From Fasciolopsis buskii (lineage: Eukaryota > Platyhelminthes > Trematoda > Plagiorchiida > Fasciolidae): DNA of 64,000 bases. Location: the NCBI GenBank assembly GCA_008360955.1, contig LUCM01004870.1, positions 170,172 to 234,171 on the forward strand, given 5' to 3'. This document shows positions 1-57,975 of the stretch, piece by piece (within the stretch, counting starts at the first letter, position 1; each line of letters opens with the position of its first letter). The notes under the pieces were generated by a model. That model was not told where the DNA came from and did not search any database. It worked only from the letters and a program-made list of their open reading frames with translations. The position numbers and the translations under genes were made by a program.

Positions 1-150
1 TTGGGGCGCGGTGGATATGCACTGCTGATGATTCCTAACAAGGATGAAACAGCTGTACAGTGCTTCCATGGTTTCTTTATGGTGAGTTGAATGACGATAC
101 CACATGGTGAATTATTTGATGTAAACATTCAATCTCCTAATACAAAATGT
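1..150 (+). repeat. tRNA-derived SINE carrying a hammerhead ribozyme, 3' part
   Basis: The window opens inside a short interspersed element. A fuller copy on the minus strand at 55405-55605 adds a tRNA-like head with A-box-like and B-box-like sequences (RNA polymerase III type) upstream of the shared part, so this copy is cut at its 5' end by the window edge. The shared order is tRNA-like head, hammerhead ribozyme (11-69), then a conserved tail containing CATGGTGAATTATTT and ending near 'caatctccta'. Known parallel: schistosome Sm-alpha SINEs also combine a pol III head with a hammerhead. Whether this is the same family or a convergent one cannot be decided from the window. Confidence 0.7.
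11..69 (+). ncRNA. type I hammerhead ribozyme in SINE, intact-looking core
   Basis: A self-cleaving RNA motif. The core CTGATGA is at 25-31 and GAAA at 46-49. Stem II (33-36 with 41-44, TCCT/AGGA) lies between them. Stem III is a minimal ACA-GC-TGT hairpin at 49-56. The cleavage triplet GTA places the cut between 57 and 58. Stem I pairs 19-24 with 58-63 perfectly; after an internal loop it continues as 11-15 with 65-69, with one G-T wobble. A long stem I with an internal loop is typical of natural type I hammerheads. Weak points are a U-U apposition at the base of stem II, A rather than C at the cleavage position, and a very short stem III, which suggests dimeric folding. Confidence 0.75.
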
Positions 151-164
151 AAAAAGTGATAAAA

Positions 165-3100
165 GCCAACAAGAATCAGCAGTGTGTTGCAAAGGTCCCC
201 CTCCGACTGCAGTTCTTGAGGCGTCGGTTATCTGATATATAGATACTGAAGGGTCGAGATGTGTAAACAGTACGAACCTGCGATAGGCCGTCCCATGTCG
301 TGGGTTTTTATCGTGGAGATATTTCAGTTAATCTTTTGTTATTCTGGCAATATTCGCTGAGTTAGAATCATTTTCCTAGACGGTAAAATAAGCTTAATTT
401 TTCTGAGCATTGAAATTTTTTTAATTCATGGATGTTTAATTATTTTGCCAAATTATGTCTAAGCTTGCGCAGTCACATTTCCAGCTCTGACCTGACCTTG
501 GTGTATAAGATTTTGTATTATGTAGCACAAAGTTAATCGTTCTAGTTAGTTGTCTCCAAAGTAGATATATCTGTCGGCCTGTCTGATCGTTTTTCTATCC
601 ACGCGATTCCATATTGCTCAACATCATCCTACTGTGCAGATGTATAGCGTGACTTGTGGTGTTTTTTACGACACATTACCGTGTATTAATTATTTTAGCC
701 AGTCATGTAACGGCTGTTATATATAGTAGAATGTTGTTGTCCAAGAACAATAATTCCCCACAAAATCTGCGAATGAAACCTTACTATGACCTTAATATAA
801 ACACCTGCACAATAGGAACAATTGACGTGCAGCCTAAATCTAAATGCCAGTTAAAGACGCTCATACACTCCCTGCGTCGATCTATGTGCCCAACTGCCAT
901 CTCCTAACGCAACGGTCTGCAGCAGAACAAAATAAGACCGGCGTTGTTGTCTGGAAATGCATTAAAAATCGATTCAACAATGTACATCAAATGCTGAGTG
1001 GCTGCGTTGTTGGGTCTTATTCTTTTACGAATGAGCATTTCGTTGCGGTTCTTTCATATTCTGAAATGAAAGAAAATTAGGCATTGACCGAGGGCATTTA
1101 GGTGAGCGTAACTGGTCCTTTATTGGTTTAACGCATGGGTAACTGTGCTGACGACAACATTACAACTCCACCTACATTTATTAACTATCGCTGAAGCAAA
1201 CAATACATAAGCAACTCCCCACCGAACAAAAAGGTTGCACGTACAAACGCAAGGTAAATTACATAACGTTATCGTCACATGCCCATGGATATTTATTAAT
1301 CGTTATACGGAGCAAATCTCTTCGCCCGAGTGGAAGGCATGCGTCGAACTTAAATTGCGCGACCTAATATATGCTGTAATGGTCCGACGTGCACTTTTAC
1401 CTTCTGCGGTGCACCACGCGCGTAACTGGAACTTTCAGGAAGAAACTGAAATCCTCGGCATATGTATGTATCTTTCATTAACAAACTTAGGAATTAAAAT
1501 GTACAATGAAGCGGCTCTTCTTTAGTCCTAGCTTATTTTGTCAGTCGGCAGTTGGCGAAAAATTTTCTGCAAAGATTTTTCAGTCTAAACAACAAAACGG
1601 GAATTGGCATTATTACTTTATCACAGTGACGGGCGAAATTTATGATGGCAATATGATTAGATAGTAGCAAACGTTATATGTGACTGCAGAAATGAATCCG
1701 CGCGGTATATATAATGACAAATCAACAGATATATACGTCGTCTTTTTTCTCTATTCGGGTACACGTATATCTCAGTTCCAAATGTAGACTATTTCAGAAA
1801 GAACTACCAAATAACTTATTGTCGTCAAGGCACATTGAACACCAATGATCCACGGTCGTCTTAAGCGGAGTACCTGCAGCGTTGGACGTACTGCCTCATT
1901 GTTTCTCGCATTGTTTCTGCAGTGGCTCCTGGGTAGCGTATATGGCAAACAATTTGGAGAGGTTGGATGCAACACAACGGTGAGCGTACCTATCACCAAC
2001 GCACAAACTCCCTTGATGGACAGAGCCGTTTCCCATGGGAAGCTTTCATGTTCAGCTGACCCAGGGTGAATGTTTTGATTAACTGAGGCGTGACAACCCG
2101 AATTCTTTCAACCGGTTGTTGGTGCCGGTAAATTTATGATAAATTTTGCCTCAAAAATTAATAGATACTCAAGTGCAAATAATAGAGGGTTCTGGTTGCT
2201 TTCTCTGATAAATGCACTTGCGACGGATATTAAAGTAACCAGGTCTGTTTGCAGCAAAATTGTAATCCCCAAGTATGACTGGCTTTTAACGTTCATGTCG
2301 GTGTCTTGTGTTCGCAACAGGATTTCTGCGCCGAAGGCTAAAATTTCTTGTTGTCATTATAAGAAAGACCTAATATAAGGGTGTCCCGTGCTGGGTAATT
2401 TAACCAAAATCCATGTGCACTGCCATTTGATGCAGAAACACTCAGTTTATTCCTCCATTTCTTCATCGCTAAAATCAATTAGTGACACGAGACTGCTTTA
2501 CTCACAACACCTCGATATATGTGGCGGCTAATTCGCATATACCACACCTGTTCCTATCAGATCTTCACAGCTTACTTCTTAGTCAGATGACGTCGCGCTA
2601 TCGCCCAATTACTATGCAGAACGAAATGCTTAAGAGCCACACCGAATATCGATGTTCTGGGGGTGACCACGTACTTAAGTACGACCTGGAGCCATTCGTC
2701 CACCCATTTCTCGCAGTGATATTTATAATGAAATTGCTAGAATGCGGGAACTTACATGGAAATTGATTCTGTGCATTTTTTACATGGACACAAGGGAAAA
2801 ACAGAAAATTCAAAGTGAAATGACGGCGGAAAATAGGTTAGACGACGACGTCCAGGACACCTACTAAATTCTGAAATCCGACGCATCAACTCCACATTCG
2901 CCAGCCAACGTTTGATTGGTAGTGACAATCGATTCCTATGGCAAGGCATTCGAGTATTGTGTGGGAAGAAGAATAAGCATACAAAAACTGCTGATGTCAA
3001 CAGTATCAATCTTGTTTTCACTCATGCTTCCAAGTATACCTCATATTGTCAGATTGATGATATGACAGTTACACTTTTTTCCGTGTCCTCCGCACCACTT

Positions 3101-3487
3101 AAATTACCGCAGCGGCCGCTCCTGGTAGTCCTTCTTCTGCTTTTTTAAGGCATAGTGCTGTGGCTTTGACCGATGCATTTACCTCGCTAATTTACTCGTC
3201 AATAATCTCCTCCTCCATCCTTGACTGTTGGAGACCCATCACTAGTATTTCCGTCCCTGAATCTAACAATTCTACCTCCTTAGCCAAACGTTTTCGCCCC
3301 ATCGATTTAACGTCTTCTGGTCTTAAACTGACAGAGCCTGTTACGCTCAAGTTCCTGCATTCTTCTATGTATTCTCCTGGCTACTCTTTTCAGTTTGTCT
3401 ATAAATCTAACAGGTCCACTTTGGACGCTGTCGCCCCCCTCATTCATTACAGTATTACTCCCTAAACGCATCAATATAATCTGTGCG
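165..3487. repeat. left arm of a 3.3-kb inverted repeat
   Basis: Position p here matches the complement of 17837-p in the right arm (14350-17672). Every reading frame I compared across the arm is identical in both. The outer edge is soft: similarity with a few mismatches continues to about 152. The inner edge is the single N at 3488. The inner end (about 2880-3487) carries LINE-B reverse transcriptase coding sequence on the plus strand. In 165-2500 I recognise no gene or element. The lack of divergence means either a very recent duplication or, more likely given the N and the nearby duplicates, an assembly product. Confidence 0.85.
2880..3487 (+). pseudogene. LINE-B reverse transcriptase fragment in the left arm
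   Basis: The translation at 3160-3465 gives the start of a LINE RT domain: a 'W.PI..ISVPESNN' stretch followed by 'RFRPIDLTS', the counterpart of the 'RPISLTS' block that opens the RT domain in CR1/jockey-type LINEs. The upstream stretch around 2912-3148 is the linker between endonuclease and RT. The rest of the RT is missing here because the sequence is broken at the N at 3488. The same sequence occurs reversed at 12657-13210 and 14372-14925. Confidence 0.6.
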
Positions 3488-14341: not shown

Positions 14342-15100
14342 AGGAGCAACGCACAGATTATATTGATGCGTTTAGGGAGTAATACTGTAATGAATGAGGG
14401 GGGCGACAGCGTCCAAAGTGGACCTGTTAGATTTATAGACAAACTGAAAAGAGTAGCCAGGAGAATACATAGAAGAATGCAGGAACTTGAGCGTAACAGG
14501 CTCTGTCAGTTTAAGACCAGAAGACGTTAAATCGATGGGGCGAAAACGTTTGGCTAAGGAGGTAGAATTGTTAGATTCAGGGACGGAAATACTAGTGATG
14601 GGTCTCCAACAGTCAAGGATGGAGGAGGAGATTATTGACGAGTAAATTAGCGAGGTAAATGCATCGGTCAAAGCCACAGCACTATGCCTTAAAAAAGCAG
14701 AAGAAGGACTACCAGGAGCGGCCGCTGCGGTAATTTAAGTGGTGCGGAGGACACGGAAAAAAGTGTAACTGTCATATCATCAATCTGACAATATGAGGTA
14801 TACTTGGAAGCATGAGTGAAAACAAGATTGATACTGTTGACATCAGCAGTTTTTGTATGCTTATTCTTCTTCCCACACAATACTCGAATGCCTTGCCATA
14901 GGAATCGATTGTCACTACCAATCAAACGTTGGCTGGCGAATGTGGAGTTGATGCGTCGGATTTCAGAATTTAGTAGGTGTCCTGGACGTCGTCGTCTAAC
15001 CTATTTTCCGCCGTCATTTCACTTTGAATTTTCTGTTTTTCCCTTGTGTCCATGTAAAAAATGCACAGAATCAATTTCCATGTAAGTTCCCGCATTCTAG
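14342..15100 (-). pseudogene. LINE-B RT start and linker, second copy
   Basis: Same content as 12627-13370: minus-strand 'W.PI..ISVPESNN' and 'RFRPIDLTS' blocks at 14372-14677 and the linker at 14689-14925. It is the inner end of the right inverted-repeat arm. If the duplicate before the gap is an artefact, this copy and the palm domain at 12142-12639 belong to one element running from about 15.1 kb to 12.1 kb on the minus strand. Confidence 0.6.
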
Positions 15101-17672
15101 CAATTTCATTATAAATATCACTGCGAGAAATGGGTGGACGAATGGCTCCAGGTCGTACTTAAGTACGTGGTCACCCCCAGAACATCGATATTCGGTGTGG
15201 CTCTTAAGCATTTCGTTCTGCATAGTAATTGGGCGATAGCGCGACGTCATCTGACTAAGAAGTAAGCTGTGAAGATCTGATAGGAACAGGTGTGGTATAT
15301 GCGAATTAGCCGCCACATATATCGAGGTGTTGTGAGTAAAGCAGTCTCGTGTCACTAATTGATTTTAGCGATGAAGAAATGGAGGAATAAACTGAGTGTT
15401 TCTGCATCAAATGGCAGTGCACATGGATTTTGGTTAAATTACCCAGCACGGGACACCCTTATATTAGGTCTTTCTTATAATGACAACAAGAAATTTTAGC
15501 CTTCGGCGCAGAAATCCTGTTGCGAACACAAGACACCGACATGAACGTTAAAAGCCAGTCATACTTGGGGATTACAATTTTGCTGCAAACAGACCTGGTT
15601 ACTTTAATATCCGTCGCAAGTGCATTTATCAGAGAAAGCAACCAGAACCCTCTATTATTTGCACTTGAGTATCTATTAATTTTTGAGGCAAAATTTATCA
15701 TAAATTTACCGGCACCAACAACCGGTTGAAAGAATTCGGGTTGTCACGCCTCAGTTAATCAAAACATTCACCCTGGGTCAGCTGAACATGAAAGCTTCCC
15801 ATGGGAAACGGCTCTGTCCATCAAGGGAGTTTGTGCGTTGGTGATAGGTACGCTCACCGTTGTGTTGCATCCAACCTCTCCAAATTGTTTGCCATATACG
15901 CTACCCAGGAGCCACTGCAGAAACAATGCGAGAAACAATGAGGCAGTACGTCCAACGCTGCAGGTACTCCGCTTAAGACGACCGTGGATCATTGGTGTTC
16001 AATGTGCCTTGACGACAATAAGTTATTTGGTAGTTCTTTCTGAAATAGTCTACATTTGGAACTGAGATATACGTGTACCCGAATAGAGAAAAAAGACGAC
16101 GTATATATCTGTTGATTTGTCATTATATATACCGCGCGGATTCATTTCTGCAGTCACATATAACGTTTGCTACTATCTAATCATATTGCCATCATAAATT
16201 TCGCCCGTCACTGTGATAAAGTAATAATGCCAATTCCCGTTTTGTTGTTTAGACTGAAAAATCTTTGCAGAAAATTTTTCGCCAACTGCCGACTGACAAA
16301 ATAAGCTAGGACTAAAGAAGAGCCGCTTCATTGTACATTTTAATTCCTAAGTTTGTTAATGAAAGATACATACATATGCCGAGGATTTCAGTTTCTTCCT
16401 GAAAGTTCCAGTTACGCGCGTGGTGCACCGCAGAAGGTAAAAGTGCACGTCGGACCATTACAGCATATATTAGGTCGCGCAATTTAAGTTCGACGCATGC
16501 CTTCCACTCGGGCGAAGAGATTTGCTCCGTATAACGATTAATAAATATCCATGGGCATGTGACGATAACGTTATGTAATTTACCTTGCGTTTGTACGTGC
16601 AACCTTTTTGTTCGGTGGGGAGTTGCTTATGTATTGTTTGCTTCAGCGATAGTTAATAAATGTAGGTGGAGTTGTAATGTTGTCGTCAGCACAGTTACCC
16701 ATGCGTTAAACCAATAAAGGACCAGTTACGCTCACCTAAATGCCCTCGGTCAATGCCTAATTTTCTTTCATTTCAGAATATGAAAGAACCGCAACGAAAT
16801 GCTCATTCGTAAAAGAATAAGACCCAACAACGCAGCCACTCAGCATTTGATGTACATTGTTGAATCGATTTTTAATGCATTTCCAGACAACAACGCCGGT
16901 CTTATTTTGTTCTGCTGCAGACCGTTGCGTTAGGAGATGGCAGTTGGGCACATAGATCGACGCAGGGAGTGTATGAGCGTCTTTAACTGGCATTTAGATT
17001 TAGGCTGCACGTCAATTGTTCCTATTGTGCAGGTGTTTATATTAAGGTCATAGTAAGGTTTCATTCGCAGATTTTGTGGGGAATTATTGTTCTTGGACAA
17101 CAACATTCTACTATATATAACAGCCGTTACATGACTGGCTAAAATAATTAATACACGGTAATGTGTCGTAAAAAACACCACAAGTCACGCTATACATCTG
17201 CACAGTAGGATGATGTTGAGCAATATGGAATCGCGTGGATAGAAAAACGATCAGACAGGCCGACAGATATATCTACTTTGGAGACAACTAACTAGAACGA
17301 TTAACTTTGTGCTACATAATACAAAATCTTATACACCAAGGTCAGGTCAGAGCTGGAAATGTGACTGCGCAAGCTTAGACATAATTTGGCAAAATAATTA
17401 AACATCCATGAATTAAAAAAATTTCAATGCTCAGAAAAATTAAGCTTATTTTACCGTCTAGGAAAATGATTCTAACTCAGCGAATATTGCCAGAATAACA
17501 AAAGATTAACTGAAATATCTCCACGATAAAAACCCACGACATGGGACGGCCTATCGCAGGTTCGTACTGTTTACACATCTCGACCCTTCAGTATCTATAT
17601 ATCAGATAACCGACGCCTCAAGAACTGCAGTCGGAGGGGGACCTTTGCAACACACTGCTGATTCTTGTTGGC
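14350..17672. repeat. right arm of the 3.3-kb inverted repeat
   Basis: Reverse complement of 165-3487 (coordinates sum to 17837). Apart from LINE-B at its inner end I recognise no element in it. No terminal TG/CA, target-site duplication or DNA-transposon gene was seen that would make the arms transposon termini. Confidence 0.85.
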
Positions 17673-17689
17673 CTTTATCGCTTTTCTCA

Positions 17690-44400: not shown

Positions 44401-46597
44401 ATATATTTTGATAGAGTGAATCATTGGACTTATTTCGGTGACACTGCTGTTTCTCTCTAAATGAGTGGAATAATTTCCTTACTACGACGACGAAATTCCC
44501 CCTACCAGGAGTGCATTTCATTTTGATCCCTTGGTAGGGATTTTCCAATTTCATTTGTGTGGGAGTTAATAACTTGGACGGCAACAAGAAAGCGGAACAA
44601 CTTTGTCAGAATACTCCTTCCTAGAATTGATCATTTTGTGTTTTTCAGGTCACCAAATCCTATTTATTCCTCAACAAAATTAATGGGTTTTTAGACTGAG
44701 ACGCTCAGCATTTCCTACTAATTTACAGTATAAAAAAATTTCCTGCTTTGTCATGCTAATAATTCACGCTACAAATCTGGTGCAACTTAAGGAGTTTAAT
44801 TAATATTCAAGTCTATCTGGGCGATGGCGCATGAAATTTCGATAATAATCTGCGAGAGGATCGCAGAAAGAAACTTCTGTCGTGAAATTTTAACAAAAAT
44901 ATGGGCAACTTCATGGTCACTTTCGGATATGATTGATTTCATTCATAAAATTTATGCTCTTGGCATAGTTGATTTGTTTACTATGATACAAATGGTGCCC
45001 TAATTTATTTAAAATGCTGGAAGCGATTCAATACAAAATTTTAAATCGACTGACGCCTTGGAATCAGCTACTTACACTACATTGCAATGCCAGAATATTT
45101 TACTGTTCCTGCCTCGCTGCTTCACTCTCGCGGTAACAATGTAAGCGACTAACGCAACGCGCCTAAATGACCTTAACACAAAGGAACTTGATCTTCTCTA
45201 AACAAAAATTCTCCTGTTCAAGATCAGCCATGAGTAGTAGACCCCAGTTAACAAATAATTATATTCAGCCTAAAAATGCGGGCGTAACTGTGGATAGAAC
45301 ACTTGATAAAACAATTGTTTGCTGGGTAGGCGAGTTTGTTATCATCTATGGAGACATAATAGGATAAATTTTAAGGCTTTGCCAAAACATTTGTGAACAT
45401 TTCATGCTCCGGGAGAGTTTAGTTTTTCATATTTAGACGCTTTTATCTAGAAAGCCATGGTCACCAATGTTTGATTGACCCAATTACAGTCTACAGACAG
45501 ATATAATAAAGGAAGCTTGTAAACAAATTCAAGGTATTTCCCGATGCTCTTTTACACCAAGCAAGTATTGGGGCCCTAAATATTTTAACATCAGAAATTT
45601 CTGAGTACATCACAATCGGCGGCACTTTATGTATATATATATATATGATATTTCCCACCAGAATCCAATCTGTAGCAAGAGGAGTGTGCATGGAAGCTGT
45701 TCGTCGAAGAGTCCACAGAAGAATTACAACTGTGATTCGTTGATAATTCTTTGTCAGTTGGGCTGAGCCAACCTTAGGAACGAGGGCAGAATGCCCCAGA
45801 ATATACGTATGTATATACAGAAGAAGGAAGTAGTATCTGGATGCGTAAACAAAATTTGCCCGGGAGCACACGACCGGTTTCGCGGTTATTGTCGCTCGTC
45901 AGGTATGCGTACCCGATGCTCTCTTGTCCAAACATCCACATANNNNNNNNNNNNNNNNNNNNNNNNNNNNNNNNNNNNNNNNNNNNNNNNNNNNNNNNNN
46001 NNNNNNNNNNNNNNNNNNNNNNNNNNNNNNNNNNNNNNNNNNNNNNNNNNNNNNNNNNNNNNNNNNNNNNNNNNNNNNNNNNNNNNNNNNNNNNNNNNNN
46101 NNNNNNNNNNNNNNNNNNNNNNNNNNNNNNNNNNNNNNNNNNNNNNNNNNNNNNNNNNNNNNNNNNNNNNNNNNNNNNNNNNNNNNNNNNNNNNNNNNNN
46201 NNNNNNNNNNNNNNNNNNNNNNNNNNNNNNNNNNNNNNNNNNNNNNNNNNNNNNNNNNNNNNNNNNNNNNNNNNNNNNNNNNNNNNNNNNNNNNNNNNNN
46301 NNNNNNNNNNNNNNNNNNNNNNNNNNNNNNNNNNNNNNNNNNNNNNNNNNNNNNNNNNNNNNNNNNNNNNNNNNNNNNNNNNNNNNNNNNNNNNNNNNNN
46401 NNNNNNNNNNNNNNNNNNNNNNNNNNNNNNNNNNNNNNNNNNNNNNNNNNNNNNNNNNNNNNNNNNNNNNNNNNNNNNNNNNNNNNNNNNNNNNNNNNNN
46501 NNNNNNNNNNNNNNNNNNNNNNNNNNNNNNNNNNNNNNNNNNNNNNNNNNNNNNNNNNNNNNNNNNNNNNNNNNNNNNNNNNNNNNNNNNNNNNNNN

Positions 46598-52600: not shown

Positions 52601-55600
52601 TTGCAGTTAGGCAGCTCGCGTTTTTGTTCCATTAGACTTAGCGACGCTTGTGAGATCCAGTGTTTTTGATGAATGCTAGGTCTGGGACCGCAGGCGAAAT
52701 TCGCTGCCAAATGCATCGCCTGCTTAATTTGATCCCACTGATCGTCTACATTGCTGCTCGTCGAAGTTCTTAGTCCATCGGATAGTTTCTGTTCGTAGCT
52801 GTTGCGAACAGCCAAATCAGACAAACGTCCGATACCCAATCGGATTTGTGGCCTGCGTCGATGGCCATTCAGCTGCAGCAAAAATCGCATTAAAACTAAC
52901 GCATTGTCCGATTCGACGTACGTGGTCCAGTATGATCTACAGTTCTGGACAGAACCGCGCCAACGGTAGCTAACTGCGATATGGTCGATCTGACTCAAAG
53001 TACCTGTCGAGTTAGGGCGCCATATCGCCGTGTGACGCGAACTGTGTCGGAAATTCGTACTAGATAGGAATAAATGATTATCTGCACAGAACTGGAGAAG
53101 TCTTTCCCCGTTGTCTGTCCGCTGTGCAGGCAAGGCGCATCGCCCGTCTAGACAGGACTCCGATGCACTCAGTTTTCCACTACCACTACAATGTCAGAGC
53201 GTTTGCTCTTCCGAACAAGAGTGACGAGGTTATCGTGAAACTTGGGCTAGAATATAATTAGTTTTCTTATCTGTTACATTAAAAAAAATTGAAGGTCATT
53301 TGGCTCATCCGTCGCGATGCATTTGCGGTACATATGATTTCGAGAAGAATATACAACAGTACATGGTGTTTTACGTATCCAACTGGCTGATGCTTCTCCT
53401 CGGTGAACGGCTGTAAACGTTTGTCTCTAAGAAGTATACAATTTTTACAGTATTATATCGTTTACGGTACATATAAAATAAACGCCTTCATTACCCTGCA
53501 TGTTCGTTTTAGCTAGTTAATTCACCAATGATGGAACACTTGAACTAGCATGCGAATCGACCTTTGTTTTCAAGGTAACGGTTTCTTAGCCATATGGAGA
53601 AATTTTGTTGCGGCCTAAGAATGTAATGGTTATTGTCATCGCACTTTTATTTATTGAGGATTTGTCTGGCACTATATGTCGCTATGCGATTATTCGTCTC
53701 TGATTAACTTCTAGTGTCGTTATCCGAACAATCTAAGGGATTTCCTGCAATGTTGGCCTACAGATGAACGCGAACAGTGGTTCAAGTTTCGCGGTGAGCT
53801 TGCTGACGCGCTACTCATGGCCTACAGTAACCCGATATCCAAACCGTGGTTTATCGACCATTCGGACCTGGGATGTTTAGTGGAGGCCTACGCCGGCTTC
53901 TATGACGGTGCATGGCAAGTGAGTAATTTTTCGGGAGACCCGGTTTGTTTTTCATAAGAAGCCTCATGTCCCGTTTTTTGCACTTGGATGAAATAATTTC
54001 GATCAGCTACTGTGGCGCGTTCCTTTGAGTTTCTAGCGATAGAAGGTTGAAAATAGGTGTGTATATTTTCGCTTTGGTTGAAATGAAACTAGGCGTAATA
54101 CGTTGTAGTCTTATTTGGTGTTCACATTATTGCAGGAAGCATTTCCTTTTTGTAAACAAAAGCTGTGTAGGTTTTCGATTTTTCCCGTCATCTGATATCC
54201 GTCAAAGACAGGAAAGCACGTAACACCCACTTAATAAAATCCATTAAGCTTTCTAATGTGCTCATCGTGTAGCCGGTCAGAATTTTCTCCTTTGTTTTTA
54301 TTTTCATTTCAAGACATTTGTTCCACCCAAGTGATTGGTTCTTGGATCATTTGTTTATTGGATAGGACTTGGAATCGTTCCTGTACATTTTTACCGCTAT
54401 CAGCGAGCAGTTGATTCAGGAATTCCATCATGCTTCCACCGTTGCACACGACCTGATCACCAGCTTGGTTCGCCACCTTTTCCACGTCGTTCAAATAATT
54501 GTCCAACAAATGAATGACTCCTCTTCTGCAGAAGATTCATGTCTCTTCCGTAGTTTGCTCACAGCAAAAGTGTTGCAAATGCTGGACGCTTATTCGCCTG
54601 TTCTGAACTTCCTGAAGTCGGATCCGACTGGATTGGACTTGGCCGCTGCAACTCAACTGGTTTCTACCTGTTTAATTGACTCCACACGATCACCAGCTTT
54701 CGCTGAAATACGGGTCATGCTGTCTATGACTGTTCTGAAAACACTGAAGACTTTTACTCAGGTATTTTCCTGCGACTCTTCAGTTCAAAAATGCCCTAAG
54801 AAATTTTTTTCCTTCTATTTATATGACTCTACGCTTACTGCTCATCATACTGGAACGTATCTAGTTAAGTAACCTTGTTTTCACGGTTGTTTTCATATCA
54901 GTTGTATAAATATACCTAATCTCAGCGATTGACTTTAATTTTCGGCTATGCGACCGACTTAAACTTATGCTTAAGTTGTGCTATTCTTCTCACGTTTTTC
55001 TCATCTGTCGTCAGTTTACTAAGTTTGGACTGACGGAATGCGATAATGAAAATAGATTTCCGATGCATTCGTTTTCAGAACTTGTTTCCAACTGAGGTCG
55101 AAGCAACAGAAATCCTGAATATATTGAACTACCTTCAAAAGGCTAACAAACCTTTCCCAACGGAGGTGGAACTGCTCGCTTCGTACGTCGCCGGTGCGCT
55201 TGTATCTCTTGTTCCAGAGAATCGTGTGTCTGCTGAAATTGTACAAAGACTAACTCAGTCGTTTGAATGCTCGCTTACGCTTGACGGGAACCAACATGCA
55301 GATGGTCAGTCTGATAAAAGTAAGCACCTTTGCGATTACACTTGTAAACTTCTTTTGTTTATTTTCAAACCTACTAACTAATAAGTATTTATATATGTAT
55401 ATAAATATATATATGAAATAATTCACCATGTGATATCATCGCTCAACTCACCATAAAAAACCCATGGAAGCACTGTACAGCTGTTTTATCCTTGTTAGGA
55501 ATCATCAGCAGTGCACATCCACCGCGCCCGAACTGGGACGCGAACCCGGGACGAACGATTCTGAGTCGAACGCCTTGGCCATTACACTACCGGGCAGGCT

Positions 55601-57975
55601 GTGAACGGTTTCTTGAACTTCACCGCAGGATGTTGCACCTATCTGTCACTGATTTGCACGGTTACTGTCCGTTAGCTTACAGCGATCGACCCCTACTGAT
55701 AGATGACTTCTCTGCAGGTAGCCTAAGTACGGCAAAGGCTTTGGATATGACCTACAGAGCTTGATTACTTGATACATTTTAGTAGTAGGAGATTGAATGT
55801 TTTCATGAAATAATTCACCATGTGATATCATCGCCCAACTCACCATAAAGAAACCATGGAAGCACTGTACAGCTGTTTCATCCTTGTTAGGATCATCCTT
55901 GTTAGCAATGATATCACATGGTGAATTATTTCATGTAAACATTCAATCTCCTACTACTAAAATATATATATGCTTTGCAATTCTTGGAAAAACTTCACGG
56001 GACGAACATTGAAGAACATGAAATCATTATCTTTTTCGACATCATGTCGATTTCACATCCACACCCTGAGATTTGGCAAGACAGACACTGCATGTACTTT
56101 TAGAGGAGCACTAATAGAACGAACAATTGAAGTCGAGTAGTGTTTGCCAATTAGTGGAATTGTGCCTGCGAACACACTTCAAGTTCGACAGAACGTTTTA
56201 CGACTCAATGGGCTCACCAACATCTGGCTTCATTGCAAAGGCAGTGATGCTGAAACTCGAGAAGACCATCCTGCCGTACATCAAACCAAAACTGTGGCTG
56301 TGCTACGTTGACGATACGTTAGCAATCATTAAACGATCTGCACTACAACGAACCTTCATTGTCATCACGGAAATCAAGTTCATTATGGGGACGGAACATG
56401 ACAACAGTCTACCGTTTCTAGACGTGCTCGTCGCACGGACAAATATAGGGACATTGGAAACATCCGTATAAAACAAAAACAAGCACACAGATCAAATTCT
56501 ACAATTTCAAAGCAACCACTCAAGCTGCCACGAGAGAAGCTGCATCATAACACTATTCAAAAGGGCACAATCTCACTCCAGTACTGCGAAACGAAAAAAA
56601 ACAAGAAGGAAATCTTTTTCAAATGCTTCTGCGCAACGGTTACACACGAAGCTTCATCAGACGAAGCATCAGAACAAAGGAGTACCGAGAGACGATCACC
56701 GAACAGATCAAAATACGGGCCCTCCTGCCGTATAGCAAACATAGTTCTGTAATGGCAACAAGAATACTCAAGTCCCATGGAATTGAAGTGGGTCACAGCG
56801 CAACAAGAACCCTACGAATGGTTCTACCGAAGACATCCAATAAGAATCAAGCTAACGTTTTCTGTCAAACCGACTGCAAAGACTACACGGGACAAACCGA
56901 AAAGAAACTCTAGACACGGATCCATGAGCACCAATTGGCGACAAAAAGGCACGATCCACTCCTCCTAGTTTCACCTCACGAATAACGGGAAAGTTTCAAT
57001 TCGAAAACGTGAAAATCGTCGCCCGGGATAGAACAAACCATTCGGGGGAGTTTCTCGAATGTTGGCATTCCTCAGAAAAACCGATGTACAGACACGTCGA
57101 TCTGGACCACGCATATCTATCGATCCAATCAAAAGACCAACCAGCACAAGCCAGTAGAAACGGACGATGATTCAGCCCACAACAAGTCAACAAATGACAG
57201 ATGAGCGCAGCAACTGGGCAGCGTTACTACCCTACTACTTCAGCCAGAGCAGCCATTCAACACCGACTAAAGATTAGGCGACTCATTTAAACGAACGATA
57301 GGAAGCAGACGCTCGCTGCAAGATCATCTCGACTGGTGATGTAATGTTTCCAATCAAATTGGCTAGCTCAGCTAAAAAACCAATAGCATTATATGTATAT
57401 ATATTCAGGTAATCCCTACAATTCCTATATATACATATGTATATTGTGGTGGCATTCTGCTCTCGTTCCTAAGGTTGGCTCAGCCCAACTGACAAAGAAT
57501 TATCAACAGATAACAGTTGTGTACTCTTCAACGAAGAACTTCGATGCACACTCATGACGCTACAAACTAGATTCTGATGAGACATACAAATTCCGAGTGT
57601 ATAAGTAAAAGAATGTTTGGACAGAGCATCGGGTATGCGTACCTGAGGAGCGACAATAACTGCAAAACAAGTCGTGTGCTTCCAGGGAAATTTCGTCCAC
57701 TCATCCACTTACTACTTGCAATTCGTACATATAGTCGATTGGTGTTAGTTAGTCAGTGTGTGTCTGATTTGCAGCTAATTCGTTTCACATCATAGCTCTC
57801 TCGTTTTTGCTGCCTGCTTATGCCACCGAAGAGAGCGTGTAGCTGTTGTTGTCTCCATAGGATAGCAACTGTCTTACATCCGTTAAAACATGCTGTTTTC
57901 TCTATTAAACCTCCATCGGTTTGTCTTTCAGCTCTGAGGATTAGTCCACACCAAGTTGATCAATTTTTGTTTGCA
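30507..57975 (+). CDS. IPO13: importin-13-like nuclear transport receptor, ten exons, 3' end not found
   Basis: Importin-13 is a HEAT-repeat karyopherin-beta that shuttles cargo through the nuclear pore under control of RanGTP. Exons: 30507-30725, 32688-32796, 35879-36084, 36159-36376, 43896-44085, 50204-50473, 53715-53918, 54366-54761, 55079-55319, 57932-57975. The lengths sum to 2,097 bases (699 codons) and all intron phases agree (0,1,0,2,0,0,0,0,1). Blocks recall human IPO13 in order: 'STEIWDLIWTLL...PKMQFFGA', 'FITILAEEFKTADL', 'RHSELIFSS', 'WPTDEREQWFKFRGELAD', 'SFLYIFTAISEQL'. Human IPO13 is about 960 residues, so roughly the last third is missing and should lie beyond the window. Transportin-3 is the nearest alternative. 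Family call from recall, not from a search. Introns are packed with retroelements. Confidence 0.85.
31620..32350 (+). pseudogene. RTE LINE 3' fragment in intron 1
   Basis: Plus-strand frames at 31689-31883 and 31890-32126 give the end of an RTE protein: 'SKCEILLRRWIGSKPNLVL', 'VDRFSSLGNCISPGGS', 'IKGRVCTTSVGSVLLYDSET' (family: VLLYGSETW) and a 'ERCYVRGI' block. The copy starts after the palm motif, which is typical 5' truncation. Frameshifts separate the blocks. Confidence 0.75.
32688..32796 (+). CDS. IPO13: importin-13-like exon 2
   Basis: 109 bases between acceptor TTTGCAG (to 32687) and donor GTAAGT (32797). Phase 0 in, one base left over. The split codon T|GG restores a Trp that aligns with the conserved Trp of the 'MMPDAWP' region. 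Sequence conservation is weak ('KTSALCLEIGG'); the main support is the exact phase fit with exons 1 and 3. Confidence 0.7.
32860..33160 (-). repeat. tRNA-derived SINE in intron 2
   Basis: On the minus strand a B-box-like GGGTTCGAATCCC stands at 33087-33099, preceded by a degenerate tRNA-like head starting near 33150. The body extends to about 32860. It does not fold into a canonical tRNA, so I call a SINE, not a tRNA gene. Confidence 0.5.
33190..33290 (+). repeat. tRNA-derived SINE head, opposite orientation
   Basis: The plus strand shows an A-box-like 'TCAACTGGTAGAATA' and a B-box-like 'GGATTTGAATCCC' about 45 bases later, the spacing of a pol III promoter. The remaining tRNA arms do not pair well. 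Confidence 0.4.
33300..35250. other. intron 2, no element recognised
   Basis: Frames of at most 101 codons without known motifs. Confidence 0.35.
35257..35312. repeat. (TA)n microsatellite
   Basis: About 28 TA units, followed by the PLE-like remnant at 35325-35405 and a second TA run at 35415-35446. Confidence 0.95.
35325..35405 (-). repeat. PLE terminus remnant with hammerhead-like sequence
   Basis: Minus strand: 'GACGAGTCC' stem-II half, six-base loop, 'GGATC', 'GGAAC' where GAAAC is expected, then 'gataaacgt'. It aligns with the terminus of PLE-2 at 38.93-38.99 kb. Core positions are mutated, so it is a relic. Confidence 0.4.
35415..35446. repeat. (TA)n microsatellite
   Basis: About 16 TA units on the other side of the PLE-like remnant. 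Confidence 0.95.
35879..36084 (+). CDS. IPO13: importin-13-like exon 3
   Basis: Acceptor TTTGCAG, donor GTGAGT, ends phase 0. 'DVLTFITILAEEFKTADL' matches the 'ELLTVLPEEFQTSRL' block of importin-13, one of the clearest matches in the gene. Confidence 0.88.
36159..36376 (+). CDS. IPO13: importin-13-like exon 4
   Basis: Separated from exon 3 by a 74-base intron with a TTCCAG acceptor. Donor GTATGC at 36377, two bases left over. 'SVWMSTFA' and 'QAMRHSELIFSS' match the 'SSWVQLE' and 'ALQDSELFDSS' blocks of the family. Confidence 0.88.
36420..37930 (-). pseudogene. LINE-B copy 2 in intron 4
   Basis: Minus strand, opposite to the host gene. Endonuclease: 'STQKSWLNPRVADTLVSIAG' and 'GTGGGIATYINSS' at 37670-37915, then 'IIVGDFNHDS' (GDFN kept) and 'STSDHHLLLL' (SDH kept) at 37181-37489. 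Linker near 37040 ('ICRPLEILLCNGRIVSPKL'), then the pre-RT block at 36420-36920 ('VTPFSKEEPFKLLRSTKITT'). The copy stops before the RT palm, so it lacks catalytic RT. Confidence 0.75.
38510..38700 (-). repeat. tRNA-derived SINE in intron 4
   Basis: The minus strand reads an A-box-like start near 38690 and a B-box-like 'AGGCTCGAATCCCGG' near 38640, followed by an unrelated body. No full tRNA fold. Confidence 0.45.
38890..39390 (-). pseudogene. PLE-2, 3' part of a Penelope-like element (GIY-YIG domain and terminus)
   Basis: A 110-codon minus-strand frame at 39053-39385 carries the end of a PLE protein: 'STGETSKQLRTCLQEHKLTL' (family: YxGQTxRxLxxRxxEH, GIY-YIG endonuclease) followed by 'NHCAQTGNEVNIVNPKVIAR'. 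Downstream (39050-38930) is the terminus with hammerhead-like sequence, then a short TA run at 38890-38910. The RT part is missing. Confidence 0.7.
38930..38990 (-). ncRNA. degenerate hammerhead-like motif in PLE-2 terminus
   Basis: Minus strand: 'AACGAGTCC' (3' half of the CUGANGA core plus stem II), loop, 'GGGTC', 'GAAA', a minimal 'ATAT' stem III and cleavage-like 'C|ACAATAAAC', with a partly complementary 'GTTTACGTTG' upstream for stem I. Core positions C3 and G5 differ from consensus and stem II has a mismatch, so activity is unlikely. Confidence 0.35.
39390..40080 (-). pseudogene. RTE-A copy 2, 5' endonuclease fragment
   Basis: Minus-strand frames at 39767-40021 and 39389-39613: 'SDTCNGSLSRGTVEDFQSS', 'PRQPLTFGLFIVCTLIQA' (family: SFNVRTLMQA) and 'KHEFRIQ' for SETRIQ. 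More decayed than the copies at 25.7-28.4 and 62.2-64 kb, and cut off within the endonuclease. Confidence 0.65.
40815..43110 (-). pseudogene. RTE-B copy 2 in intron 4, endonuclease plus RT
   Basis: Minus strand. Endonuclease at 42610-43107: 'DIDCWNARTLLDTCSQRISV', 'GIDIACLFEVRLPNSGS'; then 'GDCSARTGPADE' near 42530 and a degraded SDH region. RT: the 181-codon frame at 41036-41581 ('CVLFPIPKKGDK', 'TQCGFPRGRGCMDQ', 'FIDFRAALNSVE') and LEFADD with the catalytic Asp pair at 40921-40932. A one-base frameshift near 41030 separates palm blocks, and motif A reads AALNS where the family has AFDS, so it is inactive. Together with copy 1 this defines the family. Confidence 0.8.
43896..44085 (+). CDS. 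IPO13: importin-13-like exon 5
   Basis: Acceptor at 43895 (CAACAAG after a pyrimidine-rich tract) chosen because it is the one that restores the phase left by exon 4. 'FRPILEHLVQCHAQSI' and 'ISEFSLLLVALTEKQ' fit 'LIPLVLGLQEQLRQA' and 'ICRIAVALGE'. The donor GTTCGT is weaker than the others; read-through would meet a stop at 44161. Confidence 0.75.
44090..45610. other. intron 5, first part: no element recognised
   Basis: A/T-rich with short frames only; no repeat shared with the rest of the window. Confidence 0.35.
45620..45942 (-). repeat. PLE-1 terminal repeat (pLTR-like) with hammerhead ribozyme
   Basis: Minus-strand sequence matches 57434-57700, which follows the PLE-1 coding region: shared blocks include 'AAGGTTGGCTCAGCC', 'CAAAGAATTATCAAC' and 'AGAGCATCGGGTA'. 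The element has no coding sequence here; it runs into the N gap. A short TA run sits next to it at 45631-45646. PLEs are known to carry hammerheads in their terminal repeats, which fits. Confidence 0.7.
45858..45920 (-). ncRNA. type I hammerhead ribozyme in PLE-1, intact-looking core
   Basis: On the minus strand: CTGACGA (complement of 45896-45902), stem II GCG-loop-CGC (45882-45895), GAAA (45878-45881), minimal palindromic stem III ACCGGT (45873-45878), cleavage triplet GTC with the cut between 45872 and 45871. Stem I pairs GCATAC upstream with GTGTGC downstream (6 bp, one G-U), then an internal loop and GGG/CCC pairing. All core nucleotides agree with the hammerhead consensus. The minimal stem III suggests cleavage as a dimer. 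Confidence 0.8.
45943..46597. other. assembly gap (655 N)
   Basis: Run of N inside intron 5, between a PLE-1 terminus and a TA microsatellite; probably an unresolved repeat. Confidence 0.95.
46598..46651. repeat. (TA)n microsatellite
   Basis: About 27 TA units right after the gap; the true length is unknown because the gap abuts it. Confidence 0.95.
46660..47224 (+). pseudogene. RTE-A copy 3, 5' untranslated region and start of ORF
   Basis: Plus strand: a diverged copy of the RTE-A 5' region (compare 62260-62520; shared blocks 'cagcttatctgaag', 'ggtcaatg', 'taattgatcca', 'tagaaccaaatg'). It continues into the N-terminal coding part ('SETCNGSLSRGTVDFQSS') and stops at about 47224, where LINE-B begins on the other strand. 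Confidence 0.65.
47225..49490 (-). pseudogene. LINE-B copy 3 in intron 5, interrupted
   Basis: Minus strand. Endonuclease start at 49302-49487 ('TFIFRIQELSLNPGIADSFV'), SDH block near 48890 ('TSDHCLLLL'). Linker at 48005-48190 ('ICCPLKTLFVSNECIFSQVL'). Pre-RT and first RT blocks at 47627-47953 ('REEVFKSLRTTEITT', 'KSVTTVPIPKSTSSTALAKR'). Motif A at 47354-47605 ('SAFSSVPRSRLLHRLETFG', where the catalytic Asp of AFDSVP is replaced by Ser). Sequence ends at motif B near 47237. An unrelated segment (48240-48720) splits the linker. Confidence 0.75.
48240..48720 (-). mobile_element. possible solo LTR inserted in LINE-B
   Basis: A segment with no coding content interrupts the LINE-B linker. On the minus strand it has a TATA box (CTATATAAACG, near 48595) followed by 'gagctcact', as in a Gypsy LTR promoter. 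The plus-strand edges could be TGTTATG (48263) and AACGTCA (near 48711). AAAATAT occurs at 48252-48258 and 48717-48723 and could be a target duplication, but then the termini do not start with TG. A related stretch is at 59385-59480. Confidence 0.4.
50204..50473 (+). CDS. IPO13: importin-13-like exon 6
   Basis: 90 codons, phase 0 at both ends. Acceptor TCGCAG at 50203 and donor GTACGT at 50474. 'VPIMFQMFPIPFTLAGAYPRDEGVSDLALQIW' region corresponds to the 'MFCTGIPGHYPVNETTS...TFWYTL' part of importin-13. An upstream start of the open frame (from 50156) is intronic on this model. Confidence 0.82.
50985..53246 (-). pseudogene. RTE-A copy 4 in intron 6, SR2-like RTE LINE
   Basis: The best preserved RTE-A copy. 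End of endonuclease and linker in a 284-codon frame at 52279-53133 ('TDNGERLLQFCADNHLFL', 'SQIDHIAVSYRWRGSVQ'). RT fingers at 51841-52278 ('RGKAAGPDDLPPVLFK', 'IPLSWGESLIVCIFKKG'). Palm at 51578-51829 ('GAFDSVDRPTLFSAL' with the catalytic Asp, 'GVRQGCPISPFLFNF'). The YADD block is deleted at about 51580, where 'DDLGWH' runs straight into sequence from beyond it. C-terminus at 51102-51287. 5' truncated within the endonuclease at 53246; opposite in strand to the host gene. Confidence 0.85.
53715..53918 (+). CDS. IPO13: importin-13-like exon 7
   Basis: 68 codons, phase 0 at both ends; acceptor TTCTAG, donor GTGAGT. 'CWPTDEREQWFKFRGELADALL' is the counterpart of 'FWSSDEKEQFRIYRVDISDTLM', the strongest diagnostic match for importin-13/transportin-3. 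Confidence 0.9.
54366..54761 (+). CDS. IPO13: importin-13-like exon 8
   Basis: 132 codons, phase 0 at both ends; acceptor GGATAG, donor GTATTT. Opens with 'DLESFLYIFTAISEQLIQEF', matching 'HTEALLYGFQSIAETID'. The rest has the helical pattern of HEAT repeats. There is a roughly 35-residue insertion relative to human around 'QQMNDSSSAEDS'. Confidence 0.88.
55079..55319 (+). CDS. IPO13: importin-13-like exon 9
   Basis: 241 bases; acceptor GTTTTCAG, donor GTAAGC, one base left over. HEAT-like helices 'VELLASYVAGALVSLV' and 'SAEIVQRLTQSFE' fit the 'LMQALGFLLSAL...VEEILKNLHSLI' region. The acidic/polar end before the donor is variable in the family. Confidence 0.8.
55405..55605 (-). repeat. tRNA-derived hammerhead SINE, most complete copy, intron 9
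   Basis: Minus strand: tRNA-like head with A-box-like 'TAGTGTAATGGCCAAGG' (near 55575-55591) and B-box-like 'GGGTTCGCGTCCC' (55537-55549), hammerhead region (55464-55522), conserved tail to about 55416, then a TA-rich run at 55388-55412. It shows the full architecture of the family whose 3' part opens the window. Confidence 0.75.
55464..55522 (-). ncRNA. hammerhead ribozyme, inactivated (G12 to A)
   Basis: Same fold as 11-69 (coordinates sum to 55533). CTGATGA is intact at 55502-55508 and stems I, II and III are preserved, but the conserved G of GAAA is A (T on the plus strand at 55487). G12 acts as the general base, so this copy should not cleave. Confidence 0.7.
55783..55960. repeat. fold-back of two SINE tails
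   Basis: 55783-55834 (minus-strand SINE tail) and 55909-55960 (plus-strand tail) are near-perfect inverted copies (AGTAGTAGGAGATTGAATG / CATTCAATCTCCTACTACT ends). Between them the minus-strand copy keeps the 3' half of the hammerhead (GAAA complement at 55876-55879) but its CTGATGA is replaced by a short duplication of 'CTAACAAGGATGA'. PLE-1 coding sequence starts right after at 55970. Confidence 0.7.
55970..57250 (+). pseudogene. PLE-1, Penelope-like element: RT palm to GIY-YIG, intron 9
   Basis: 5' truncated copy starting at the RT palm: motif A trace 'IIIFFDIMSI' near 56030; 'FKFDRTFYDSMGSPTSGFIA' (family: FxYxQxxGxxMGSPxSP) at about 56175; YVDD catalytic motif at 56304-56315; 'HDNSLPFLDVLV' near 56400. 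Then, after frameshifts, 'ALLPYSKHSS' and 'HSATRTLRMVLP' at 56623-56913. The GIY-YIG part is 'FCQTDCKDYTGQTEKKL' with 'TRIHEHQLA' after one stop. GIY-YIG plus this RT type identifies PLEs. Same strand as the host gene. Confidence 0.85.
57434..57700 (+). repeat. PLE-1 3' terminal repeat (pLTR-like)
   Basis: Matches the minus-strand terminus at 45620-45942 and follows the PLE-1 coding region, so it belongs to the same family. TA-rich sequence precedes it (57390-57444). It contains a hammerhead copy at 57625-57690. Confidence 0.7.
57625..57690 (+). ncRNA. hammerhead ribozyme in PLE-1, inactivated (G12 to A)
   Basis: CTGAGGA at 57643-57649 (valid, since N7 is free), stem II GCG/TGC around ACAATAAC, then AAAA at 57664-57667 in place of GAAA, minimal stem III AC-AA-GT, cleavage triplet GTC ending at 57673, and stem I GTGTGC at 57674-57679. 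Only the G12 position departs from the core consensus. Confidence 0.7.
57932..57975 (+). CDS. IPO13: importin-13-like exon 10, candidate micro-exon
   Basis: 44 bases between a strong acceptor (GTTTGTCTTTCAG) and a consensus donor (GTGAGT). It takes the single base left by exon 9 to make 15 in-frame codons (T-LRISPHQVDQFLFA) and ends in phase 0. The start resembles the 'LISPYIQQL' helix of importin-13, though not strongly. I could not find the next exon in the remaining 6 kb. Confidence 0.5.

What the first reader, a model, noticed from the sequence alone, without database searches (positions are those of the whole stretch)
11..69. Hammerhead ribozyme inside a tRNA-headed SINE
The fold is complete: CTGATGA, stem II, GAAA, minimal stem III, GTA cleavage triplet and an 11-bp stem I with an internal loop. 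The better copy at 55.4-55.6 kb shows it sits between a pol III type head and a conserved tail. Schistosome Sm-alpha SINEs have the same logic; if this genome is not a schistosome, this would be a related or convergent ribozyme SINE.
Basis: partly seen in the sequence, partly recalled or inferred. Interest (0 to 1): 0.85.

Follow-up and report, generated by a model that had tools for sequence, protein, structure and literature searches.

The report
Ribozyme SINE with Penelope-type insertion footprint
A genome, probably of a fluke, carries thousands of copies of a short mobile repeat made of a tRNA-like start and a self-cutting RNA motif, and the way sampled copies sit in the DNA looks like the footprint of the Penelope retrotransposon machinery, which published work seen here names only as a likely mover of such repeats.

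Summary
Window 11-69 (+) is a complete type I hammerhead ribozyme (HHR) directly 3' of a tRNA-like head. It is part of a 392-bp unit found in head-to-tail arrays of up to 8.35 units. A 21-mer of its tail occurs 3,727 times exactly; reversed control 0. It is a tRNA-headed SINE of the schistosome Sm-alpha kind and equally a metazoan non-LTR retrozyme. The host is probably a trematode: the best named relatives of one window RT are Schistosoma and Trichobilharzia at 66-71% identity.

The new part is the integration footprint. 5' ends are spread, but 104 of 110 3' ends fall at two internal sites, A (unit 106-125) or B (133-152). Of 33 clean head-to-head pairs, 28 have one arm ending at A and the other at B; 14 have a detectable target duplication of 8-15 bp. 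Published Penelope-like elements (PLEs) show the same two-site "tail" and head-to-head copies. I conclude that PLE machinery probably mobilises this element, which papers I saw name only as a likely candidate. Self-cleavage, circular RNA and the partner PLE are unproven, and the copies give no covariation support.

The parts
1..151 (+). Retrozyme/SINE copy 1: unit 383-392 then 1-142, 3' end at site B; an assembly gap (N) lies directly upstream in the contig
   Evidence: 96% identity to the L010 unit
1..10 (+). Last bases of the tRNA-like head
11..69 (+). Type I hammerhead ribozyme, core intact, predicted cut 57/58
55406..55415 (.). Left copy of a possible target site duplication TATATATATG (low complexity)
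   Evidence: read by eye
55404..55897 (-). Left arm of the head-to-head pair: 1.26 units, 3' end at site A (BLAST end unit 119; the last bases overlap the AT-rich possible target duplication)
55464..55522 (-). Hammerhead ribozyme of the left arm; first G of GAAA is A, predicted inactive
55523..55599 (-). tRNA-like head
   Evidence: boundaries read by eye; the same part of the L010 unit hits the Rfam tRNA model and the A box and relaxed B box patterns
55908..55967 (+). Right arm of the head-to-head pair: unit 84-143, 3' end at site B
55963..55972 (.). Right copy of the possible target site duplication TATATATATG
   Evidence: read by eye
55968..57400 (+). Decayed, 5'-truncated Penelope-like fragment (RT motifs 56118-56468; GIY-YIG-like part about 56551-57110); named by recalled motifs, Pfam gives RVT_1 only at 14.6 bits, below its cut-off of 29.6, and no GIY-YIG
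57425..57717 (+). Decayed copy of a second, unrelated HHR repeat (317-bp unit)
45646..45942 (-). Copy of the second HHR repeat (317-bp unit); HHR at 45849-45920

Best explanation
This is a tRNA-headed SINE that is also a non-LTR retrozyme. The internal tRNA-type promoter is inferred to drive pol III transcription through tandem 392-bp units, which contain no TTTT. The hammerhead is inferred to cut the multimeric RNA, probably as a paired double hammerhead through the palindromic stem III, giving monomers that may circularise. The RNA is then inferred to be used in trans by Penelope-like RT/endonuclease. The enzyme cuts both strands of an AT-rich target about 8-15 bp apart and starts reverse transcription inside the RNA at one of two sites, A (about 68 nt) or B (about 95 nt) downstream of the ribozyme cut, usually one of each per insertion. 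The two cDNAs run to varied 5' points, sometimes more than once round the unit, and are joined head-to-head. Shown here: anatomy, tandem arrays, two fixed 3' ends, spread 5' ends, the A/B pairing, target duplications and AT-rich flanks. Inferred: transcription, cleavage, circular template and the Penelope partner.
For: (1) Arrays with a 392-nt period (a few spacings 387-397), up to 8.35 units. (2) In 57 merged loci covering 70 of the 100 places listed for an exact 21-mer, 92 clean ends: 3' ends cluster (Rayleigh R 0.949), 5' ends spread (R 0.351). With the similarity-chosen loci added, 50 of 110 3' ends lie at 106-125, 54 at 133-152, none at 126-132, 6 elsewhere. (3) Of 33 clean pairs 28 are A+B, 3 B+B, 2 B+other; 28 of 31 classified against a 0.5 maximum, p 2e-6. 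(4) A shared flank of 8 bp or more in 14 of 33 pairs against 0.9% for swapped flanks. (5) Opposite-strand neighbours within 1.2 kb lie tails-outward in 11 of 12 cases. (6) AT content of pair flanks 63.6% against 58.7% background; of the 14 duplications 75.7%. (7) PLE features in print: two adjacent internal RT start sites that define the 30-40 bp tail, both target strands cleaved and extended, AT-rich targets (PMC11167929, parts 1-2 of 4 read); a 31-bp tail on one of two inverted pLTRs, 8-10 bp duplications, head-to-head copies (PMC3846280, passages). (8) Relatives of the PLE-like RT fragment are abundant here: 150 matches, 1,679 first-look candidates of which 150 were scored.
Against: The PLE naming of the window RT rests on recalled motifs: Pfam does not reach its cut-off and finds no GIY-YIG, and the genome search for GIY-YIG did not complete. 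The 392-bp unit shares no more than 9-nt words with that fragment, which lacks the 5' region where start sites would lie; no PLE with the same tail was found. The PLE paper reports no difference in start site between the two target strands, no need for HHR cleavage in insertion in vitro, and unprocessed RNA as the main substrate; this speaks against a required cleavage or circle. 19 of 33 pairs show no duplication of 8 bp (14 show none of 7); single arms show 4 of 26, one of them pure AT repeat. No covariation excess. The monomer's best fold blocks the core, -19.4 against -13.0 kcal/mol. A 3-nt insertion shared by one unit of L011 and one of L013 fits a linear multimer as well as a circle. A+A pairs are undersampled because the search word ends at unit 113. 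5' ends are not uniform (excess at unit 1-28).
Confidence: 0.75

Rival explanations
1. An ordinary SINE mobilised by a LINE; the inverted pairs are twin-priming products and the arrays arise later by unequal crossing-over.
For: tRNA head and 5' truncation are usual in SINEs (recalled); 3 of 10 window ORFs tested have an RVT_1 domain and look LINE-like by recall.
Against: LINE insertions have one fixed 3' end (recalled); here there are two, used one per side in 28 of 33 clean pairs. No consistent poly(A) or simple-repeat tail was seen by eye. The two arms cover overlapping parts of the unit in 33 of 33 pairs. Units within the young arrays L010 (6), L012 (3) and L015 (2) are identical.
Confidence: 0.13
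2. Satellite DNA spread by recombination, the hammerhead being incidental.
For: Tandem arrays with a near-constant period; parts of some insertions are repeated next to N gaps in the assembly.
Against: Dispersed single copies and pairs, 14 of 33 pairs with target duplications, spread 5' with fixed 3' ends.
Confidence: 0.04
3. Inverted pairs arise by snap-back self-priming of one cDNA, as discussed for Penelope inverted repeats with palindromic junctions (PMC3846280, passages).
For: Head-to-head structure; the HHR contains self-complementary stems.
Against: Snap-back predicts nearly equal 5' coordinates in both arms; 1 of 33 pairs is within 10 nt, shuffles average 3.1. Junction overlaps are 0-4 nt in 24 of 33.
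Confidence: 0.05

Closest known systems
Sm-alpha / Sj-alpha SINE-like elements of Schistosoma (HHR SINEs)
   Same: Sm-alpha: tRNA-Gln-TTG-derived, type I HHR, representative unit 335 bp, more than 10,000 copies estimated (PMC2770079 and PMC8490949, passages)
   Different: Here 392 bp; the head's anticodon loop reads CTAACAA (AAC at the anticodon, valine-like, inference only); probably a different trematode host; sequence homology could not be tested because no Sm-alpha sequence was at hand
Metazoan non-LTR retrozymes (Cervera and de la Pena 2020)
   Same: Type I HHR in tandem units of 150-450 bp, no LTR features, GC below 50%, target duplications larger than 4 bp when present (PMC7229834, passages, part 2 of 6 and discussion)
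   Different: That paper leaves the partner open (LINEs or PLEs, PLEs a strong candidate); the words SINE and polymerase III were not found in it. Here a tRNA head and a PLE-type insertion footprint are seen
Penelope-like elements (for example PAc of Anolis; Penelope of Adineta vaga)
   Same: HHR (PAc), tandem or head-to-head copies, two internal RT start sites or a short tail, short target duplications or AT-rich targets (PMC11167929, PMC3846280)
   Different: The element here is a 392-bp unit too short for an RT gene; interval about 27 nt against 30-40 bp; no shared sequence found with the few PLE pieces seen

Membership tests
Type I hammerhead ribozyme | CUGANGA - stem II - GAAA - stem III - NUH - stem I, opened at stem I | tested here: met
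   32 of 70 distinct copies keep the full core
Type I hammerhead ribozyme | Rfam gathering score | tested here: not met
   25.0 of 52 bits (HH9); 26.7 of 34 bits (Hammerhead_1). A curation threshold, not a structural feature
Type I hammerhead ribozyme | Compensatory changes across copies | tested here: inconclusive
   Covariation score 0.063 against 0.065 in shuffles, 4 cells with double changes against 2.9; copies too similar and many dead
Type I hammerhead ribozyme | Loop I - loop II tertiary contacts | not tested
   not modelled
Type I hammerhead ribozyme | Self-cleavage | not testable with these tools
   needs transcripts
Metazoan non-LTR retrozyme | Type I HHR in tandem units of 150-450 bp | tested here: met
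   392-bp arrays
Metazoan non-LTR retrozyme | Low GC (below 50% in the text, below 45% in a legend) | tested here: inconclusive
   unit GC 47.2%: below 50%, not below 45%
Metazoan non-LTR retrozyme | Expressed as circular RNA | not testable with these tools
   no RNA data held
tRNA-headed SINE (Sm-alpha-like) | tRNA-derived 5' part with A and B boxes | tested here: met
   full-length tRNA model match, 22.5 bits, below gathering 29; A box TAGCGTAATGG; B box only with one departure, GGTTCGCGTCC; ARAGORN finds no tRNA
tRNA-headed SINE (Sm-alpha-like) | Sequence homology to Sm-alpha | not testable with these tools
   no schistosome nucleotide collection; Ferbeyre 1998 not held
Mobilised by Penelope-like elements | Two alternative 3' ends a few tens of nt apart, one per arm of a head-to-head pair | tested here: met
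   28 of 33 clean pairs A+B; 104 of 110 ends at the two sites
Mobilised by Penelope-like elements | Short target duplication and AT-rich target | tested here: met
   8-15 bp in 14 of 33 pairs, control 0.9%; flank AT 63.6% against 58.7%
Mobilised by Penelope-like elements | Sequence or tail shared with an autonomous PLE of the same genome | tested here: inconclusive
   none found in the window fragment, which lacks the 5' region; the upstream pieces L122 and L123 showed no recognisable PLE sequence

The most novel reading that the evidence does not exclude
A SINE class whose retrotransposition partner is a Penelope-like element. A pol III transcribed, self-circularising RNA is copied by rolling-circle target-primed reverse transcription from both strands of the target, at two RNA sites that mimic the PLE tail. 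This would settle how metazoan retrozymes and perhaps Sm-alpha spread.
Probability: 0.4. Interest if true: 0.8.

Novelty: new variant of a known kind. Interest (0 to 1): 0.62.

Why it matters
How animal hammerhead repeats spread is an open question. PLEs were proposed because both carry type I HHRs, occur in tandem and co-occur (PMC7229834, discussion; PMC7761336, passages; PMC8969392, passages). A genomic footprint like that of a purified PLE protein makes the proposal directly testable, and suggests that SINEs can parasitise PLEs as well as LINEs. My searches of the held open-access library listed no paper whose title and abstract start report this footprint for a retrozyme or SINE; I opened nine papers in all and read only parts or passages of them, and most subscription papers are not held.

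Tried and rejected
Covariation of the HHR across 70 distinct copies: no excess. COX1 for species naming: two frame-broken hits over the family cut-off, which I could not use to name the species. Genome-size matching to a lung fluke (Paragonimus genomes 697-923 Mb, PMC7370270, one section and passages): suggestive only, not claimed. The HHR at 45.8 kb as a PLE pLTR: it is a separate 317-bp tandem family; of 18 fetched PLE downstream pieces one (L101) holds part of it, and a copy follows the window's PLE fragment, so a link to PLEs is open. Same-template test of paired arms: shared-variant fraction 0.318 within pairs against 0.231 between, divergence 0.102 against 0.118, weak. Absence of TTTT in the unit: 23% of shuffles lack it too. 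A stable hairpin between A and B: not predicted. Protein search with the PLE fragment: nothing at E 0.001; PDB by sequence: nothing.

Full report
WHAT IS THERE. Window 11-69 (+) is a complete type I hammerhead. The window lies in an unnamed 703-Mb genome of 6,974 contigs. A DNA search with window 1-330 returned 67 matches, 40 of 1,368 first-look candidates being scored. Fetched loci showed head-to-tail arrays with a 392-nt period, for example L010 (7 HHRs in the main array) and L011 (9 HHRs, 8.35 units); a few spacings are 387-397. In one unit, numbered from GTGGATATGC in L010, the HHR spans 1-59 (cut 47/48), the conserved tail about 84-147, and a tRNA-like head about 319-392 abuts the HHR. 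The tRNA model scores 22.5 bits and Hammerhead_1 26.7 bits, both below gathering. An A box and a B box with one departure are present. A 21-mer of the tail occurs 3,727 times exactly; the reversed control 0 times.

HOST. A window RT fragment finds 115 proteins; the named ones that cover 90% or more of it are mainly Schistosoma and Trichobilharzia (55-71%), with Opisthorchis at 54% and a hookworm at 41%; shorter matches include Dicrocoelium, Fasciola and some records labelled as bacteria, and the best of all, 76%, is unnamed. A second fragment finds Schistosoma margrebowiei at 53%. The host is taken to be a trematode, probably not a sequenced schistosome; this is an inference from mobile-element proteins, and the species is not identified.

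INTEGRATION FOOTPRINT. To avoid choosing by similarity I used the first places listed for the 21-mer: 70 of the 100 listed (of 3,727), in 60 fetched loci, 57 after merging L032/33, L036/37 and L040/41. All blocks in these loci were counted, also a few not tagged by the 21-mer. BLAST gave 38 head-to-head pairs and 31 singles; after dropping blocks near N runs or locus edges, 33 pairs and 26 singles remained. L065 was counted as two singles although its A and B arms lie 161 bp apart. The 3' ends are fixed, R 0.949; the 5' ends spread, R 0.351, but not uniform, with 22 of 92 at unit 1-28 inside the HHR. With the similarity-chosen loci added, 50 of 110 3' ends lie at 106-125, 54 at 133-152, none at 126-132 and 6 elsewhere. 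Pairs: 28 A+B, 3 B+B, 2 B+other. Singles: 16 A, 8 B, 2 other. Shared flanks of 8 bp or more: 14 of 33 pairs against 0.9% of swapped flanks; singles 4 of 26 against 1.2%. Flank AT content is 63.6% in pairs against 58.7% in the same loci, and 75.7% in the 14 duplications. The A+A class is undersampled because the search word ends at unit 113. Of neighbours within 1.2 kb among the 100 listed places, 11 are tails-outward, 1 tails-inward, 5 same strand. Paired arms do not share a 5' coordinate (1 of 33 within 10 nt, shuffles 3.1), against snap-back priming. The window's own copy at 55.4-55.97 kb fits: left arm ends at A, right arm at B, within a low-complexity TATATATATG duplication.

WHY PENELOPE. 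Frangieh et al. (PMC11167929, parts 1-2 of 4 read) report that a purified PLE protein cuts and extends both target strands, starts reverse transcription at two adjacent internal RNA sites, and that the interval is the genomic "tail". PMC3846280 (passages) describes a 31-bp tail on one of two inverted pLTRs, 8-10 bp duplications and head-to-head copies. In the first paper's numbers the main start lies 85-92 nt after the HHR cut (26 against 111-118, my subtraction); here A and B lie about 68 and 95 nt after it. The interval here is poor in G (1 of 29 at unit 114-142); theirs is called AC-rich. Two of their results do not favour my fuller model: start sites do not differ between strands, and HHR cleavage is not needed, unprocessed RNA being the main substrate in vitro. 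The window holds a decayed RT fragment with recalled PLE motifs; Pfam gives only RVT_1 at 14.6 bits. It has 150 reported relatives here. No PLE with a matching tail was found; only small pieces could be fetched, five of which were read, all with AT-rich repeats near the end of the element by eye.

TEMPLATE. Of 92 unselected arms 15 exceed one unit, so their template was multimeric or circular. Units inside L010, L012 and L015 are identical; L021 differs by 1, L011 by 0-6, L013 by 1-4, old L027 by 14-55; between loci the median is 7, the minimum 0. This favours copying from one monomer circle, but a homogeneous parent array would do the same, and the 3-nt insertion shared by L011 and L013 allows a linear multimer.

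RIBOZYME. The isolated monomer prefers a fold that pairs the core (-19.4 against -13.0 kcal/mol). Two copies paired through the palindromic stem III reach -41.9, close to the dimer optimum of -44.7 and below two blocked monomers at -38.8. This predicts cleavage in multimers, as in newt repeats (PMC6155905, passages), and stable circles. Tertiary contacts were not modelled. The core is hardly more conserved than the rest of the motif among copies (0.933 against 0.925), as expected for dead insertions.

VERDICT. The two-ended inverted insertions are the surprise, because they turn the PLE hypothesis for retrozymes into something visible in a genome.

Noticed in passing
window 45646-45942 (-), 57425-57717 (+); L109-L121: A second, unrelated HHR repeat with a 317-bp unit, no tRNA model hit, 3,672 copies within 3 mismatches of a 28-mer (control 0); its ends fall mostly at about 96-123 or 276-280 (exceptions 37, 64, 140, 157, 250), and of 7 opposite-strand neighbours 5 are tails-outward.
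   Followed up: partly
window 152-3487 and 14350-17685: A 3.3-kb inverted repeat at 100% identity that starts right after the first retrozyme copy; with N runs nearby it may be an assembly error.
   Followed up: no
L040, L051, L058, L062: Parts of insertions are repeated next to N gaps, probably an assembly artefact.
   Followed up: no
L091, L094, L095, L096: These PLE copies run into (AT)n-rich repeats near their 3' end, judged by eye.
   Followed up: no
window 33077-33143 (-): Sub-threshold tRNA model hit, 25.2 bits, possibly another tRNA-derived repeat.
   Followed up: no
alignment A1 (70 HHR copies), unit 3-4 and loop II: Some copies carry GTCC instead of GTGG in outer stem I, and some a 3-nt longer loop II; the outer stem could then pair in another register.
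   Followed up: no
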